Assembly (NCBI RefSeq): GCF_042477335.2
Contig: NC_091255.1
Location: forward strand, 17,958,501 to 18,022,500
DNA length: 64,000 nucleotides
Direction of reading: 5' to 3'
Source: Ovis canadensis
Taxonomy: Eukaryota; Chordata; Mammalia; Artiodactyla; Bovidae
Each line of letters begins with the position of its first letter. Position 1 is the first letter of the stretch. Positions 5,893-62,868 of this stretch are shown in pieces. The notes beneath the pieces are model-generated. The model did not search any database. It had not been told where the DNA came from and was given only the letters and a program-made list of their open reading frames with translations. The position numbers were made by a program, and so were the translations under genes.

Positions 5893-6117
5893 AATGAAAG
5901 TCCCTCAGTTGTGTCTGACTCTTTGCGACCTCATGGACCTCATGGACTGTAGACTGCAAGGCTTCTCTGTCCATGAAATTCTCCAGGCCAGAATACTGGC
6001 ATGGGTAGCCATTCCCTTCTCCAGGGGATCTTCCCAACCCAGGGATCGAACCCAGGTCTCCCTCATTGCAGGTGGATTCTTTACCCACTTAGCCATTCAG
6101 GAAGCCATTCCTATGGC
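5893..6117 (-). mobile_element. Bov-tA-type SINE
   Basis: Full-looking copy in reverse: 'cagttgtgtctgactctttg' at the left and the tRNA-like head ('ggatcgaacccaggtctccc ... gattctttaccc') at the right. Confidence 0.92.
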
Positions 6118-11468: not shown

Positions 11469-11599
11469 CCAAACTGATCATCATAAAGAAAAGAATTTAA
11501 AAACCCACTTCACAAACATTTAAAACAGAAATCAACAAACCTAGTTTTATTGTACAAAAGTGACAGTATGCTACTTTTGGCAAGTCAATTATAAACAAA

Positions 11600-11813
11600 A
11601 CCACTCAGACAGTGTCCTCCCCCTCCTACTCTCCCAAAGGAAGAGAAGAACGATCATCAATGGCCAATGGCAGCTGCAGAAGCAACACCAAGGACCAGCT
11701 TCACGCTCAGGAGAGAACACTGCATCTCCTCCTCGTGGTTTCGGGTGCTCTACACGATCAGAGAAACTTCTCTAGTAACAAACTATAGAAATGATCCCTG
11801 AAAGTATAGTCTT
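11600..11813 (-). ncRNA. SNORD3: U3 snoRNA gene, copy 3 (U3-3)
   Basis: A 214 nt minus-strand U3 box C/D snoRNA. The 5' AAGACTATACTTTCAGGGAT block, GAGCGTGAAG (box B), the TGATGATCGTTCTTCTC box C region and terminal GTCTGAGTGGT (box D) are all present. It differs from U3-1/U3-2 at many positions in the variable stem-loops and matches U3-4 closely. A PSE lies 42-60 bp upstream. I see only a weak 3' box candidate downstream. Its role would be the same as U3-1: 5' ETS and 18S pre-rRNA processing in the nucleolus. It lies just beyond the inverted end of a BovB copy. Confidence 0.94.
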
Positions 11814-11854
11814 ATCCTCCACCCCCTGCCGCTGCCAGGCCTGTGCTAGCTGTG

Positions 11855-11873
11855 CACTTTTCACTGAGGGCAA
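11855..11873 (-). promoter_or_regulatory. PSE of U3-3
   Basis: Minus strand TTGCCCTCAGTGAAAAGTG, 42-60 bp upstream of the RNA. It fits the vertebrate PSE consensus (ACC-T-A-T--AAAGNG) with one base less in the centre. Confidence 0.75.
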
Positions 11874-12023
11874 CCGTTTCCCCACCACTTTGCCATTTTT
11901 TCTTCTACTGGGAAAAAAAACAGGAAGACCTCTTGCAATAAGCTTTCAAATGTTGTCACTTATCAACTCATTTGAACATTTTCACTGAAAATGTAATTTA
12001 ACTGTTTTTAAAAATCAAACTTA

Positions 12024-12053
12024 ATTTACATAATACAGAGTGACAGCCAATCA
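12024..12053 (-). promoter_or_regulatory. distal element of U3-3
   Basis: Octamer-like ATTTACAT at 12024-12031 and CCAATCA at 12047-12053, about 211-240 bp upstream of the RNA. The order and spacing mirror U3-1. Confidence 0.5.
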
Positions 12054-12068
12054 CAACCCCAGTCTTTA
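12053..12068. other. empty site orthologous to the 5' ETS insertion
   Basis: ACAACCCCAGTCTTTA occurs once here. In the paralogous block beside U3-4 the same 16 bp occurs twice, at 14411-14426 and 15439-15454, flanking the inserted DNA. Confidence 0.92.
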
Positions 12069-12985
12069 AAGCCCAGGAGGCATTTGCTGCACAAAATCAC
12101 TAAAGGTGCCCCGCCCCTGAAAGGAAAGGGCGGGTCTCTGCCTTTGCTCTTGAGAACCTAGCTGATTCCACTGATTACTTAATCTTAGCGGCTGCATTCA
12201 AGGCTGTGGAAGAAGTTAGAGTTTCAAACTCTCATAAGAGGTGACCATGACTAAAGCAGAGATGGGGGCTGGGTGGGTGAGAATCAGAGCTGGAAAACAG
12301 AACCTTTGGGGTTTTGCCATAGGATTGCACTACCTGTACACACTTTCTAAATTTTTAAAATAAAGCTGACTGCTGCCTTTGACATCATTTCTTCTCCCAA
12401 AAAATGCCTGAGTGCCAACTATGACAATACTAGCTACTATTTATTGTGAGTTTGCCAGCCTCCATTCATCATTTTAACTGCTTTAACTATGAGACCAATA
12501 CAAGTACAATCATCCCATTTTTAGGGATGGGGGAACTAAGGCACAGAAAGGCCTGAGGTCTGTCAATAGCAGAGCTGGTAGGTGTCACCTTAACCACCAT
12601 CCCGGTTTGGCTTTCTAGGTGCTAAAGATTACTCTAGGTACTGGGCAAACAGAGGTCCCTACTCTCACAAAAAGCTTACACCCTGGTAGGGGAGAGAGGT
12701 GACAACAATTACCCAGAGGATGAGATGATAAGGCATGCAGAGGTTGATGAGTTCAGAGAGGGATTTGATGGCCACTTCAGATTTGGGTGCTCAGGGAAGG
12801 CCTCTTTTTGGAGGCTGCATTTAAGTGGGGAAAACAATGAATACAATGACCCAAAGAAAGGAACAAGGTTGTGTGTGCCAGCAACTGGAAGACAGCTAGA
12901 GAACACAGGGTAGGAGGAAGAGCAGGCAGGCCGATGTCTGAGGATTTTCTGGGCAAGTCCAACTCCCGGGGAGTCTGGATTTTGA

Positions 12986-13957: not shown

Positions 13958-14171
13958 ACCACTCAGATGGTGTCCTCCCCCTCTTACTCTCCCAAAGGAA
14001 GAGAAGAACGATCATCAATGGTCAATGGCAGCTGCAGAAGCAACACCAAGGACCGGCTTCACGCTCAGGAGAGAACACTGCATCTCCTCCTCGTGGTTTC
14101 GGGTGCTCTACACGATCAGAGAAACTTCTCTAGTAACAAACTATAGAAATGATCCCTGAAAGTATAGTCTT
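13958..14171 (-). ncRNA. SNORD3: U3 snoRNA gene, copy 4 (U3-4)
   Basis: A 214 nt minus-strand U3 copy, nearly identical to U3-3. The 5' block, box B, box C and the core CTGA of box D are intact. The base before TCTGAG at box D is changed (ATCTGAG instead of GTCTGAG), and CTGA itself is preserved. A PSE lies 42-60 bp upstream. Just beyond its distal element is the 5' ETS retrocopy, so the promoter-proximal 240 bp is undisturbed. The 3' flank is unrelated to that of U3-3. Likely functional or recently so. Confidence 0.93.
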
Positions 14172-14212
14172 ATCCTCCACCCCCTGCCGCTGCCAGGCCT
14201 GTGCTAGCTGTG

Positions 14213-14231
14213 AACTTTTCACTGAGGGCAA
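14213..14231 (-). promoter_or_regulatory. PSE of U3-4
   Basis: Minus strand TTGCCCTCAGTGAAAAGTT, 42-60 bp upstream of the RNA. One base differs from the U3-3 PSE at its 3' end. Confidence 0.72.
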
Positions 14232-14381
14232 CCATGTCCCCACCATTTTGCCATTTTTTCCTTCTACTGGGAAAAAAACAGGAAGAGCTCTTGCAATAAG
14301 CTTTCAAATGTTGTCACTTATTAATTCATTTGAACATTTTCACTGAAAATGTAATTTAACTGTTTTTAAAAATCAAACTTA

Positions 14382-14411
14382 ATTTACATAATACAGAGTG
14401 ACAGCCAATCA
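14382..14411 (-). promoter_or_regulatory. distal element of U3-4
   Basis: ATTTACAT (14382-14389) and CCAATCA (14405-14411) are kept. The last base of CCAATCA is the first base of the target-site duplication, so the retrocopy landed directly upstream of this element. Confidence 0.5.
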
Positions 14412-14426
14412 CAACCCCAGTCTTTA
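14411..14426. repeat. target-site duplication, left copy
   Basis: ACAACCCCAGTCTTTA, repeated exactly at 15439-15454 and present once at the empty paralogous site 12053-12068. Confidence 0.95.
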
Positions 14427-15438
14427 TTTTTTTTTTTAATTTTTTATTTTTTTTTTTAAAAGAATAAGAAAAAAAAGGCAACGAGCGGCACACGGCCCCA
14501 CCGCGGGGCCGGCGCACCCAACTCCCTCCCCTCCCACGGAGGGCGGGGGAGTTCTGCTCTGCCCACGTGCTCTGGCAGTCGCCACGGTGGCCACTGCGCA
14601 CTCGGGAGGGGCAGCGGCTGGGGGCTCCGGTACCCCAAGGCTCCCTCTCGGATCGCTAGAGAAGGCGTTCTCACCGAGGGCGCGCCGTCCCTCCCCCGGA
14701 CCGTCTCACCTTCGGGCCCGCGGAGGCGCTCCTCCAGCCACCAGGCCTCAGCTGGGCGGGAGGGGTCTGCGGTACAGGGAAGCGGACCGCCACACAGGAG
14801 CGTGTGCGCGGTCAGGGCCAGAGCAGAGCCCGCGCGTCCCGCCCCCCAGCAAGGCCTCATCCACCAAGGCCTCCACGACGAGGGGAACAGGCACGCCTCT
14901 CCCTACCGCCTCGACCCCCCCCAAAAAAGAGAGCCACTCTCTGGACACCCACGCCACCGTGGCGGGGACCCGAGGGGGACACCGGGTTGAGGGAAACGAC
15001 ACCACCGCTCGGCCTCAGGCACCTGAGGGACGACCTGGAGCGCTCCAGGGGCACCGCCGAGGGTCACACGAGGCACGCTCACACACCCGCGTGGGGCGCG
15101 CAGCGCGGCGGCGGCGGCACAGCCCTCCCCGCCACAGGGAGGGCCGCTCGCCGGGCACACGCCGAGCAGGCGAAGCGGGAGCAATCTGCTGTGTCAGAAG
15201 ACCCACGGCGCCCACTGACGCCCCGAGGCAAGGGACAGCAGGAGACCGAAGATCAGGGCCAGAGGCCACACACCCAACCCCTGCCTTCCTCACCCTCCCT
15301 GATGGGCAGCGGGGGGGAAGACAAGCGAGGGGCCCCGCGGACAGACCGAGAAGAGCGGACACGCTCACTGGGAACGCCCGTCCCTCGTCTGGCACGGCTT
15401 AGGCTCGGCCCGGGAGAACACGACCACACCACATCGAT
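14427..15438 (-). pseudogene. retrocopy of a 45S pre-rRNA 5' ETS fragment
   Basis: The insert is very GC-rich, reads 5' to 3' on the minus strand, and ends in an A-rich tail (14427-14457). Its 5' end, ATCGATGTGGTG at 15438, and internal blocks match mammalian 5' ETS as I remember it: 'cctggagcgctccagg', 'cgtccctcaggtgcctgagg', 'gccttctctagcgatc', 'ccttggggtaccgg'. The start coincides with the conserved first cleavage region (A'/01). The end ('gccgctcgttgcc' near 14480) lies where the human A0 cleavage region would be. This suggests an excised, polyadenylated spacer fragment was reverse-transcribed and inserted. Flanking 16 bp repeats and an empty paralogous site prove insertion. Long open frames on both strands are products of composition, not genes. 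Confidence 0.88.
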
Positions 15439-15454
15439 ACAACCCCAGTCTTTA
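15439..15454. repeat. target-site duplication, right copy
   Basis: Exact second copy of ACAACCCCAGTCTTTA. The U3 paralogous block resumes immediately (aagcccaggaggcatttgct). Confidence 0.95.
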
Positions 15455-22618: not shown

Positions 22619-22833
22619 ACCACTCAGACGGCGTTTTCTCCCTCTTACTCTCTCAAATGAGAGAAAAGAACGATCATCAACGGCAGATGGCAGCTGCACA
22701 AGCAACACCAGTCGCCTACTTCACGCTCAGAAGAAAACGCTGCGTCTCCTCCTCGTGGTTTCGGGTGCTCTACACGATCAGAGAAACTTCTCTAGTCACG
22801 GACTATAGAAATGATCCCTGAAAGTATAGTCTT
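22619..22833 (-). ncRNA. SNORD3: U3 snoRNA gene, copy 2 (U3-2)
   Basis: 215 nt, identical by eye to U3-1 over the whole RNA, with the 5' 18S-pairing block, boxes B, C and D. PSE, distal element and about 660 further upstream bases are also identical to U3-1, so both should have the same promoter strength. The 3' box is similar but not identical. It follows a BovB-rich stretch; the 5' flank is the CpG-rich block shared with U3-1. Same processing role as U3-1. Expression is inferred from intact signals. Confidence 0.96.
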
Positions 22834-32597: not shown

Positions 32598-32704
32598 TTT
32601 GGCCTTGAGGTTTATGGGATCCTATTTCCCGGACCACAGATTGAACTCGAACTCTTCGCAGTGAAAGTGCGAAGTCCTAACTGCTGAACTACCAGGGAAT
32701 TCCC
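32598..32704 (-). mobile_element. CHR-2-type SINE head
   Basis: 'agattgaactcgaactcttc ... ctgctgaactaccagggaat', reverse orientation. Confidence 0.75.
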
Positions 32705-35249: not shown

Positions 35250-35413
35250 CAGGGGAAAGCGCGAACGCAGTCCCCCACTACCACAAATTATGCAGTCGAG
35301 TTTCCCACATTTGGGGAAATCGCAGGGGTCAGCACATCCGGAGTGCAATGGATAAGCCTCGCCCTAGGAAAACCACCTTCGTGATCATGGTGTCTCCCCT
35401 GCCAGGTAAGTAT
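35250..35413 (-). ncRNA. RNU1: U1 snRNA gene, copy A
   Basis: 164 nt on the minus strand, the length of human U1. The 5' end ATACTTACCTG, which pairs with 5' splice sites, is exact. The U1-70K loop (GATCACGAAG), the U1A loop (ATTGCAC), the Sm site (AATTTGTGG) and stem-loop IV are intact. By eye it differs from the human sequence as I know it at U22 to C and C48 to U, both in stem-loop I. PSE, octamer-like site, CRE and 3' box are all in place, so it is predicted functional. Upstream about 450 bp is shared with U1-D. The DDA1 retrocopy faces away from it. Confidence 0.96.
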
Positions 35414-38682: not shown

Positions 38683-38846
38683 CAGGGGAAAGCGCGAACG
38701 CAGTCCCCCACTACCACAAATTATGCAGTCGAGTTTCCCACATTTGGGGAAATCGCAGGGGTCAGCACATCCGGAGTGCAATGGATGAGCCTCGCCCTGG
38801 GAAAACCACCTTCGTGATCATGGTATCTCCCCTGCCAGGTAAGTAT
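38683..38846 (-). ncRNA. RNU1: U1 snRNA gene, copy B
   Basis: 164 nt, minus strand, with exact ATACTTACCTG 5' end, U1-70K loop, U1A loop ATTGCAC and Sm site AATTTGTGG. By eye one change from the human RNA, U60 to C in stem-loop II. Its upstream DNA is not the A/D block, yet it has its own PSE and CRE at matching distances. A 3' box candidate (GTTTGTGCAAGGGAAGA) lies just downstream. Predicted functional and the closest to canonical after copy D. Confidence 0.96.
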
Positions 38847-44731: not shown

Positions 44732-44890
44732 CAGGGGAAAGCACCAACACAGTCCCCCACTACCACAAATTATGCAACCGAGTTATCCACATCTGGGGAA
44801 ATCGCTGGGGTCAGCTCATCTAGGGTGCAATGGATGAGCCTCGCCCCGGGAAAACCACCCGACCCTGGTTATCTTCCCCGAGGCTGACCT
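44732..44890 (-). pseudogene. decayed U1 snRNA copy C
   Basis: The 3' two thirds align well to U1: stem-loop IV side 'caggggaaagc', 'agtcccccactaccacaaat' (Sm site kept), U1A loop side 'gtgcaatggatgagcctcgc'. The 5' third is broken: after 'ggaaaaccaccc' the U1-70K loop is disrupted, and the 5' splice-site-pairing end is not recoverable ('ccgaggctgacctt' replaces the canonical end). A PSE-like sequence reading TGACCCAGACCTTAATATAG lies at 44917-44936. It is a U1 pseudogene of the same orientation. Confidence 0.85.
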
Positions 44891-61224: not shown

Positions 61225-61388
61225 CAGGGGAGAGCGCGAACGCAGTCCCCCACTACCACAAATTATGCAGTCGAGTTTCCCACATTTGGGGAAATCGCAG
61301 GGGTCAGCACATCCGGAGTGCAATGGATAAGCCTCGCCCTGGGAAAACCACCTTCGTGATCATGGTATCTCCCCTGCCAGGTAAGTAT
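61225..61388 (-). ncRNA. RNU1: U1 snRNA gene, copy D
   Basis: 164 nt, minus strand. By eye it is identical to human U1 except U157 to C in stem-loop IV: exact 5' ATACTTACCTG, U1-70K loop, U1A loop ATTGCAC, Sm site. It shares about 450 bp of upstream DNA with U1-A (roughly 96 percent by eye), including PSE, octamer-like site and CRE, but the 3' flanks differ. A weaker 3' box (GTTAAAAAGCAGG) lies at about 61203-61215. It is the best candidate for an active canonical U1 gene here. Confidence 0.97.
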
Positions 61389-61635: not shown

Positions 61636-61894
61636 CTCCGTAGCGCCGACTGAATCCGGGCCTCGTGATAGGCTGACTGACGGCCACGGAGGCGCTCGGG
61701 GCCTAATCCCCGGGGCCCGGAATGTGACCCACCTTTGTGACAGAAGAGATTGTAGGGAGGCGATAAGCTTTGCGACTGGGTGGGGCGGGAATAGTCCGAA
61801 TTGTCCAGGTGCGCCTAATGTAATCAAAGGCTCTTATGGAGAGGAGTTACGTTATCAACTGACCGAGGACACTAAATGGTGGCTTTGGAAATGG

Positions 61895-62103
61895 AGAGGG
61901 GAAGTGGCTCAGTCGTGTCCGACTCTTTGCGACCCCGTGGACTGTAGCTTACAAGGCTCCTCTGCCCATGGAATTTTCCAGGCAAGAGTACTGATTCGAG
62001 TGGGTTGCCATTTCCTTCTCCAGGGGATCTTCCCGACCCAAGGATCGAAGCCGGGTCTCCCGCATTACAGGCAGACATTTTACCGTCTGAGCCACCAGGG
62101 AAG
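61895..62103 (-). mobile_element. Bov-tA-type SINE
   Basis: 'gtggctcagtcgtgtccgac' to 'ccgtctgagccaccagggaa', reverse, complete. Confidence 0.94.
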
Positions 62104-62194
62104 CCACCTGAAAATGGAGAAACGGACCACAAAGCAAGGACAGGTTGCTTTCAAGAGGTTCCCCTTCTATACCTACTCGTGAAGAAAGAAAAGG

Positions 62195-62345
62195 TCATAA
62201 AAGGATCCTCTGGCTCAGAGGTTAAAGCGTCCGCCTGCAATGAGGGAGACCTGGGTTCGATCTCTGGGTCAGGAAGAAAATGGCAACCCACTCCAGTCCA
62301 CAGGGTCGCAAAGATTCGGACACGACTGAGCGACTTCACCTCACC
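62195..62345 (+). mobile_element. Bov-tA-type SINE, internally deleted
   Basis: Head 'ggctcagaggttaaagcgtc' and 'gggttcgatctctgggtcag' joined directly to 'aatggcaacccactccagtc'; ends 'cgactgagcgacttcacc'. Confidence 0.92.
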
Positions 62346-62703
62346 TAGAAGAAAGAGACCACTTTCTTATAGACAACTTACTATTTCCACAGTAGTTAAG
62401 AAATTTCTTTGAAGTCTACAACAGCGATGAAAAGAGACCAATATTTTTTCCCCAAAAAAAGGAAAAAAAAAAAAAAAAACAAAGATGCCCAGGCTTAACC
62501 CCTGCTGGAAAACCGAAATACCAAAAATCCTGTAAGCAACCATAACAGAAAAAGATAATCTGTATGTCTTCACATCCTCTTATGGAGCCGAACTAATTCC
62601 CATAGTTTAAAACTGGGATCGACACTGCCAACTCACAACAGCCACCACTAGTAACAAACAAAAGAAAATCTCAATTACTGCCTTCTCGTAAGACAAGCCA
62701 TAT

Positions 62704-62868
62704 CAGGGGAGAGCGCAAACGAAGTCCCCCACTACGACAAATTGTGCAGTTGAGTTTCCCACATTTGGGGAAATCGCAGGGTCAGCACATCCTGAGTGCT
62801 GTGTTTCCCAGCCTGGCCCTGGGAAAACCACCTTCGTGATCATGGTATTTCCCCTGCCAGGTAAGTGT
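62704..62868 (-). ncRNA. variant U1 snRNA copy E
   Basis: 165 nt, minus strand, aligned with U1 from end to end. The 5' end is ACACTTACCTG (U2 to C), which would favour 5' splice sites ending in GTAAGTGT rather than GTAAGTAT. The U1-70K loop GATCACGAAG is intact. Stem-loop II is rewritten: the U1A-binding ATTGCAC is lost and about 2 nt are inserted. The Sm site reads AATTTGTCG instead of AATTTGTGG. Several other changes lie in the 3' half. It keeps a PSE at the right distance, while its distal region has a degraded octamer and a SINE at 63128. It may be a weakly expressed U1 variant or a pseudogene. Confidence 0.82.

What the first reader, a model, noticed from the sequence alone, without database searches (positions are those of the whole stretch)
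14411..15454. A retrotransposed 5' ETS spacer fragment of pre-rRNA sits beside a U3 snoRNA gene
Seen: a 1.0 kb GC-rich insert with an A-rich tail, exact 16 bp target duplications, and an empty site at the paralogous position 12053-12068. Recalled, not searched: several internal blocks match human and mouse 5' ETS. The 5' end falls at the conserved first-cleavage motif (ATCGATGTGG) and the 3' end near the A0 region. Inference: the source was the excised A'/01-A0 spacer fragment, polyadenylated (as nuclear surveillance does) and reverse-transcribed. Retrocopies of a spacer decay intermediate are unusual. The landing site directly upstream of the gene for U3, the RNA that directs this cleavage, is striking but may be chance.
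Basis: partly seen in the sequence, partly recalled or inferred. Interest (0 to 1): 0.9.

Follow-up and report, generated by a model that had tools for sequence, protein, structure and literature searches.

The report
Retrotransposed pre-rRNA spacer beside U3
A discarded piece of the ribosomal RNA precursor appears to have been tailed with A's, copied back into DNA and inserted next to a U3 gene, leaving a fossil of an RNA that cells normally throw away.

Summary
A 1012-bp insert (14427-15438, sense on the minus strand) has exact 16-bp target duplications and a 31-nt A-rich tail, and the paralogous U3 copy has an empty site. Its first 963 nt are homologous to the mammalian pre-rRNA 5' ETS: best piece 233 bits to human and 128 to mouse, against shuffle maxima of 45.4 and 32.6. 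The 5' end is ATCGATGTGG, where mouse small RNAs in a printed table also begin, i.e. site A'/01. Homology stops about 31 nt before the classical human A0 position, inside a nanopore-mapped A0 range. In MTR4-depleted mouse cells adenylated 5' ETS ends accumulate at A0. Best explanation: the excised A'-A0 fragment, adenylated by nuclear surveillance, was inserted by LINE-1. The insert lies 16 bp upstream of the CCAAT box of an intact-looking U3 gene. No bovid 45S unit was reachable and the genome search did not complete, so the exact 3' end, an 18-nt T-rich stretch and copy number are open. The U3 neighbourhood is most simply chance.

The parts
15439..15454 (-). 5' target-site duplication (sense TAAAGACTGGGGTTGT)
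   Evidence: exact 16-bp match to 14411-14426 and to the empty site 12053-12068
14476..15438 (-). 5' ETS-derived body, 963 nt, beginning ATCGATGTGG (A'/01 site) and ending ...GCTCGTTGCCT
   Evidence: alignment to recalled human ETS (605/943 identical) and mouse ETS (437/841); three of nine oligos printed in papers score above both controls
14645..14666 (-). best conserved internal block GCCTTCTCTAGCGATCCGAGAG; holds CTTCTCTAG (element nt 775-783), 9-nt complement of U3 nt 39-47
   Evidence: 21/22 to a printed human pre-rRNA primer; the same 9-mer is in recalled human and mouse ETS
14458..14475 (-). 18-nt T-rich stretch between ETS homology and A tail, origin unexplained
14427..14457 (-). A-rich tail, 31 nt, 28 A and 3 T
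14411..14426 (-). 3' target-site duplication; its promoter-proximal end touches the CCAAT box (GATTGG, 14405-14410) of the U3 enhancer
12053..12068 (.). empty (pre-integration) site in the paralogous U3 copy
13958..14171 (-). U3 snoRNA gene next to the insert
   Evidence: Rfam RF00012, 202.2 bits, the highest of four U3 matches in the window
14172..14410 (-). U3 promoter stretch left in place: PSE-like element near -50, octamer-like ATGTAAAT at -218, CCAAT box (GATTGG) at -239
   Evidence: motif positions equal those of the empty paralogue, with one base difference beside the PSE-like motif; CCAAT-octamer distance equals that of the U3 genes at 2519 and 22619; motif names recalled
11600..11813 (-). 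paralogous U3 gene without the insert
   Evidence: 97.7% identical to the 13958 gene

Best explanation
The insert is a processed retropseudogene of the excised 5' ETS spacer. Pre-rRNA was cleaved at A'/01 and near A0, releasing a spacer fragment of about 1 kb. Instead of being destroyed at once it was oligoadenylated, as the MTR4/exosome surveillance pathway does with A0-ended fragments. LINE-1 machinery in a germline cell then used that A tail for target-primed reverse transcription at a TTTA/AAG (or CTTT/AAAG) site 240-255 bp upstream of a U3 gene. Shown: ETS homology (against recalled references and printed oligos), the 5' end at the A' motif, the A tail, exact duplications and the empty site. 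Inferred: that the 3' end was made by A0 cleavage (possibly with trimming), that surveillance added the tail, and that LINE-1 did the insertion. It is most likely an inert fossil.
For: Duplications, tail and empty site. Best aligned piece of the ETS-like part: 233 bits to human and 128 bits to mouse, against maxima of 45.4 and 32.6 in 200 dinucleotide shuffles; in the whole window the next match to human has E 0.34. The element begins at ATCGATG; a printed mouse 45S primer shows CTCTTAG before it, which the element lacks. In a table of 20 mouse hippocampal small RNAs four start at this point: ATCGATG (1433 and 635 reads), GATCGATG (580), TCGATG (182) (PMC6052916). Table 1 of PMC13201660 gives reported human site 01 as about C414-C416 and G420-U422; my mapping puts the element start at 421. 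Adenylated 5' ETS ends at A0 are 8-fold higher in Mtr4-depleted mouse cells, those at A' or the 18S junction below detection (PMC4057207).
Against: Human and mouse ETS were recalled, not fetched; of six recalled 15-20-mers searched in papers, two occur in the 20 of 21 papers listed. Numbering was tied to the literature by an offset of 3 fitted afterwards; 11 of 16 printed residue letters then agree (6 of 6 from older reviews, 5 of 10 from the nanopore column), so 'position 421' is good to a few nt only, and four of the six nanopore letters for site 01 do not fit. Homology ends about 31 nt before the classical A0. The 18-nt T-rich stretch is unexplained. Six of nine printed oligos did not beat both controls: two were upstream negative controls, and 45S_Fw cannot match fully because it starts 7 nt upstream of A'. 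Against mouse, T-runs elsewhere in the window also match, down to E 6.5e-6.
Confidence: 0.72

Rival explanations
1. The template was not the A0-cleaved fragment but a prematurely terminated or broken Pol I transcript, cleaved at A' and then polyadenylated by surveillance; its 3' end near A0 is coincidence.
For: Homology stops about 31 nt short of the classical A0 and is followed by an unexplained T-rich stretch. Polyadenylation of incomplete Pol I transcripts in mammalian cells is reported (recalled, not fetched).
Against: The 3' end lies within a few tens of nt of A0 in a 5' ETS of 3656 nt in human and inside the nanopore A0 range C1609-U1627. Mouse adenylated ETS ends are concentrated at A0.
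Confidence: 0.17
2. A longer pre-rRNA was the template: its 5' end was made by A' cleavage, and reverse transcription was primed inside the spacer on an A-rich stretch.
For: Human precursors that start at site 01 and run on into ITS1 are detected (PMC13201660, passage).
Against: The recalled human and mouse ETS have no A-run at the junction; the tail is 28 of 31 A.
Confidence: 0.06
3. The insert belongs to a multi-copy ETS-derived repeat or SINE-like family rather than being a one-off retrocopy.
For: Not excluded: copy number could not be searched.
Against: No second copy in the 64-kb window (next hit to human E 0.34). No Rfam family matches inside the insert (gathering threshold). At 963 nt it is long for a SINE. 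A Pol III promoter was not scanned for.
Confidence: 0.04
4. A DNA fragment of rDNA was captured during break repair.
For: rDNA fragments occur outside nucleolar organisers (recalled).
Against: Exact 16-bp duplications, A tail and a T-rich nick site are hallmarks of target-primed reverse transcription (hallmarks recalled).
Confidence: 0.01

Closest known systems
LINE-1-mobilised non-coding-RNA retropseudogenes (5S, 28S, U-RNA, snoRNA, tRNA; PMC5322556 and PMC13174262, passages seen)
   Same: Target duplications and T-rich nick site; truncated sources often end at defined points
   Different: Those sources are mature RNAs or pieces of them. A PMC5322556 passage names 18S, 28S, 5.8S and 5S rRNA among its source RNAs, with no ETS in the passage seen, and its figure legend calls Pol I nucleolar rRNA tailless copies under-represented. 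'45S' and 'spacer' occur 0 times in either main text. Many of the copies in PMC5322556 are tailless; this one has a tail.
Adenylated 5' ETS decay intermediate ending at A0 (PMC4057207, passages seen)
   Same: Same spacer, 3' end at A0, A tail
   Different: There a transient RNA in Mtr4-depleted mouse cells, mapped by its 3' end only; here a germline DNA copy that also shows the 5' end
U3 snoRNA gene promoters (DSE with CCAAT and octamer, PSE; recalled)
   Same: The neighbouring gene keeps these elements at the same positions as its empty paralogue
   Different: The sequence upstream of the CCAAT box, with a GC-box-like CCCCGCCCC, is moved about 1 kb away

Membership tests
LINE-1-type processed retropseudogene | target-site duplication of about 7-20 bp | tested here: met
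   16/16 bp, plus the empty paralogous site
LINE-1-type processed retropseudogene | 3' A tail next to the duplication | tested here: met
   28 A in 31 nt
LINE-1-type processed retropseudogene | nick site of TTTT/AA type | tested here: met
   TTTA/AAG or, with a 15-bp duplication, CTTT/AAAG: near the consensus, not identical (read; consensus recalled)
LINE-1-type processed retropseudogene | insertion made by LINE-1 enzymes rather than another retroelement | not testable with these tools
   inferred from tail and nick site
5' ETS A'-A0 fragment | collinear homology to mammalian 5' ETS | tested here: met
   233 and 128 bits against shuffle maxima 45.4 and 32.6, references recalled; printed primer 21/22
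5' ETS A'-A0 fragment | 5' end at A'/01 | tested here: met
   starts at ATCGATGTGG; small-RNA 5' ends printed in PMC6052916; reported 01 at G420-U422, mapping good to a few nt
5' ETS A'-A0 fragment | 3' end at A0 | tested here: inconclusive
   inside C1609-U1627, about 31 nt short of 1642/1643; 18 T-rich nt unexplained
5' ETS A'-A0 fragment | alignment to the same species' 45S unit | not testable with these tools
   no match in plasmids, phages, or for the patterns scanned in viral and genome contigs; the genome search did not complete
multi-copy ETS repeat family | many copies with common ends | not testable with these tools
U3 snoRNA gene (neighbour) | U3 covariance model | tested here: met
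   202.2 bits, positions 1-219 of 219

The most novel reading that the evidence does not exclude
The landing site is not chance: the adenylated A'-A0 fragment was still bound to U3 (the best conserved block of the retrocopy carries a 9-nt complement of U3 nt 39-47) or sat in a nuclear body next to the U3 genes, so the LINE-1 particle carrying it was brought to the U3 locus, giving an example of RNA-guided or body-guided choice of a retrotransposition site.
Probability: 0.04. Interest if true: 0.88.

Novelty: new variant of a known kind. Interest (0 to 1): 0.52.

Why it matters
Retropseudogenes of mature non-coding RNAs are common; a retrocopy of an excised pre-rRNA spacer bounded by processing sites would be a DNA fossil of an RNA that normally exists only briefly. 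It would show that this fragment was adenylated and open to LINE-1 in a germline cell of an ancestor of the sequenced animal. Similar copies in mammalian genomes, if found, could serve as natural maps of spacer cleavage and adenylation sites, and their ends could be compared across species in which A' and A0 have not been mapped. Whether their positions favour U3 or nucleolus-linked loci is a simple genome-wide test.

Tried and rejected
Looked for a real mammalian 5' ETS or a second copy in the collections within reach: blastn to plasmids and phages, exact patterns in viral contigs and genome contigs. None matched, as expected for prokaryote and virus collections; this is no evidence against ETS origin. 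The E. coli collection was not searched.

Papers: searches for bovine rDNA (15 of 100 listed) and for bovine 45S primers (15 of 67 listed) showed titles and starts of abstracts only; none was opened. Novelty searches: 'external transcribed spacer' with retropseudogene, with processed pseudogene and pre-rRNA, and with retrocop: 0 papers each. A wider search (15 of 19 listed) was not followed. Kent et al. 2009 and Robicheau et al. 2017 are not held. PMC4914098 (passages) gave no sequence of A0.

U3-ETS complementarity: the 9-nt match is in the element and in recalled human and mouse ETS, but 42 of 200 mononucleotide shuffles reach 9 or more, so length alone means nothing; only its conserved place is suggestive. 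Dating by the empty paralogue: 7 of 254 mismatches on the promoter side and 9 of 134 on the distal side, Fisher P 0.10; gene conversion among U3 copies would make this unusable as a clock. CpG decay: of 129 recalled-human CpG sites aligned without gap to the element 48 are kept, 32 are TG or CA and 49 something else; without a bovid ETS, spacer divergence and pseudogene decay cannot be separated. Twin priming was considered for the T-rich stretch and set aside because it would need an antisense ETS transcript.

Full report
What is there. On the minus strand, reading 15454 down to 14411, the window has: a 16-bp target duplication (15439-15454), a 963-nt GC-rich body (14476-15438), an 18-nt T-rich stretch (14458-14475), a 31-nt A-rich tail (14427-14457) and the second 16-bp duplication (14411-14426). 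The duplication sequence occurs once more on the plus strand, at 12053-12068, the matching place of a paralogous U3 copy that has no insert. Joining the flanks gives a continuous 94.4% alignment over 627 columns to that copy, across the insertion point. The nick site reads TTTA/AAG, or CTTT/AAAG if the duplication is counted as 15 bp, close to the LINE-1 consensus (recalled). Composition is unlike the surroundings: 71.7% G+C for the first 960 nt against 43.1% and 46.6% in the flanks.

What it is. In the human comparison the two strong pieces are in order and in one orientation: human nt 424-961 (233 bits) and 1195-1614 (133 bits), recalled numbering. With mouse there is one strong piece, 656-1189 (128 bits), and weaker ones, not all of them in order. 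Two hundred dinucleotide shuffles of the ETS-like part reach at most 45.4 (human) and 32.6 (mouse) bits. Scanning the whole window, the next match to human has E 0.34; against mouse, T-runs elsewhere in the window match down to E 6.5e-6, which is low-complexity sequence. Over a three-way alignment identity is 605/943 to human, 437/841 to mouse, and 542/998 between human and mouse. A human segment of about 230 nt is nearly missing in the insert, which may be a lineage difference or a deletion.

Evidence that does not rest on recall. Nine oligos as printed in open papers were compared, without gaps, with the insert, the rest of the window (both strands) and 100 mononucleotide shuffles. Three beat both controls: a human pre-rRNA primer (PMC5951837, 21/22; controls 15 and 15), the reverse complement of a mouse 45S primer (PMC7588874, 17/21; controls 15 and 16) and a mouse small RNA (PMC6052916, 22/32 at element nt 1; controls 19 and 20). 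Six did not: human set A forward (13/19; the element differs there by an indel) and reverse, human set B reverse, mouse 45S_Fw (which starts 7 nt upstream of A' and so cannot match fully), and two mouse oligos that lie upstream of A' in my recalled sequence, used as negative controls, of which one scored 15/21, above its shuffles (14) but below the rest of the window (16). As a check on recall, six recalled words were searched in papers: two occur, as pre-rRNA primers where I looked, and four do not in the 20 of 21 papers listed.

The 5' end. The element begins at ATCGATGTGG; upstream of it the alignment shows no more than scattered identities. PMC13201660 Table 1 (section read) gives reported human site 01 as about C414-C416 and G420-U422, and its own positions as 423/424, 429/430 and 443/444. 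With an offset of 3 fitted by me, six of six letters from the older reviews fit my recalled sequence and five of ten from the nanopore column (two of six for site 01); the element start is then 421. The mouse small RNAs in Table 2 of PMC6052916 (section part read) start at ATCGATG, GATCGATG or TCGATG; the paper labels them 18S rRNA fragments, and that they mark A' is my inference. A review passage states that A' lies upstream of a conserved U3 binding site (PMC6315592).

The 3' end. Human homology ends at recalled nt 1614, about 1611 in literature numbering. That is inside the nanopore A0 range C1609-U1627 and about 31 nt before the classical 1642/1643; the same table also gives a nanopore end at 1671/1672. 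The 18 T-rich nt that follow have no clear counterpart in recalled human or mouse ETS; they may be ruminant ETS sequence up to A0, a non-templated U-rich addition, or something else. So 'near A0' is shown, 'at A0' is not.

How it most likely arose. [quoted passage not shown] the authors call the read number at A0 surprisingly low). This supplies a suitable template: a spacer RNA ending near A0 with an A tail, and, if A' was cleaved, starting at A'. LINE-1 reverse transcription primed on that tail accounts for the tail, the duplications and the nick site. That LINE-1 was the enzyme and that surveillance added the tail are inferences.

The U3 neighbour. The gene at 13958-14171 is the highest-scoring of four U3 matches (202.2 bits). 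The duplication adjacent to it spans -255 to -240, and the CCAAT box (GATTGG) starts at -239. The octamer-like ATGTAAAT (-218) and the PSE-like region (near -50) are where they are in the empty paralogue, with one base difference beside the PSE-like motif. The CCAAT-octamer distance is the same as in the two other U3 genes (-226 and -205 against -239 and -218). So the insert abuts the enhancer without cutting these motifs, and moves the GC-box-like upstream sequence about 1 kb away. Function of the gene and effect of the insert are untested. The meeting of an ETS retrocopy with a U3 gene is one event noticed afterwards, and chance is the simplest account.

Novelty. Three term searches for ETS with retropseudogene, processed pseudogene or retrocopy words returned 0 papers in the held library; most subscription journals are not held. 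A survey of tailless retropseudogenes names 18S, 28S, 5.8S and 5S rRNA among its sources, with no ETS in the passage seen, and calls Pol I nucleolar rRNA copies under-represented (PMC5322556, passages). A 2026 survey of LINE-1 chimeras adds 28S fragments; the terms 45S and spacer occur 0 times in it (PMC13174262, passages). I rate this a new variant of a known kind.

Limits. No bovid rDNA was available, and the ten requests to the genome search did not complete. The organism is presumed a ruminant from the SINE sequences (recalled, not tested).

None of these changes the odds.

Noticed in passing
2519-2733, 11600-11813, 13958-14171, 22619-22833: Four U3 matches, all on the minus strand, in two promoter types: 2519 and 22619 (a 300-nt block 100% identical as printed; 94.9% over 1622 columns), and 11600 and 13958 (97.7% in the gene). 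Between the types the gene of 2519 and that of 11600 are 87.4% identical.
   Followed up: partly
35250-35413, 38683-38846, 44732-44875, 61225-61388, 62704-62868: Five U1 matches, all on the minus strand; three score 173.6-176.3 bits, two (44732, 62704) are lower (81.2 and 118.6 bits).
   Followed up: partly
61704-62388: A 100% match of 685 nt between the stretches around the U1 genes at 61225 and 62704 is only the overlap of the two stretches compared, not a repeat.
   Followed up: yes
11585-12202 against the 13958 copy: Identity between the two U3 copies is 94.4% through gene and promoter, then about 80 nt of one copy are missing from the other and identity falls to 77.6%, which suggests gene conversion or selection on the promoter.
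   Followed up: partly
6031-6102, 32626-32698: Two weak tRNA matches near the gathering score (31.5 and 31.9 bits), perhaps from tRNA-derived SINEs.
   Followed up: no
14458-14475: T-rich 18 nt directly before the A tail, able by its letters to pair with it; origin unknown (note).
   Followed up: partly
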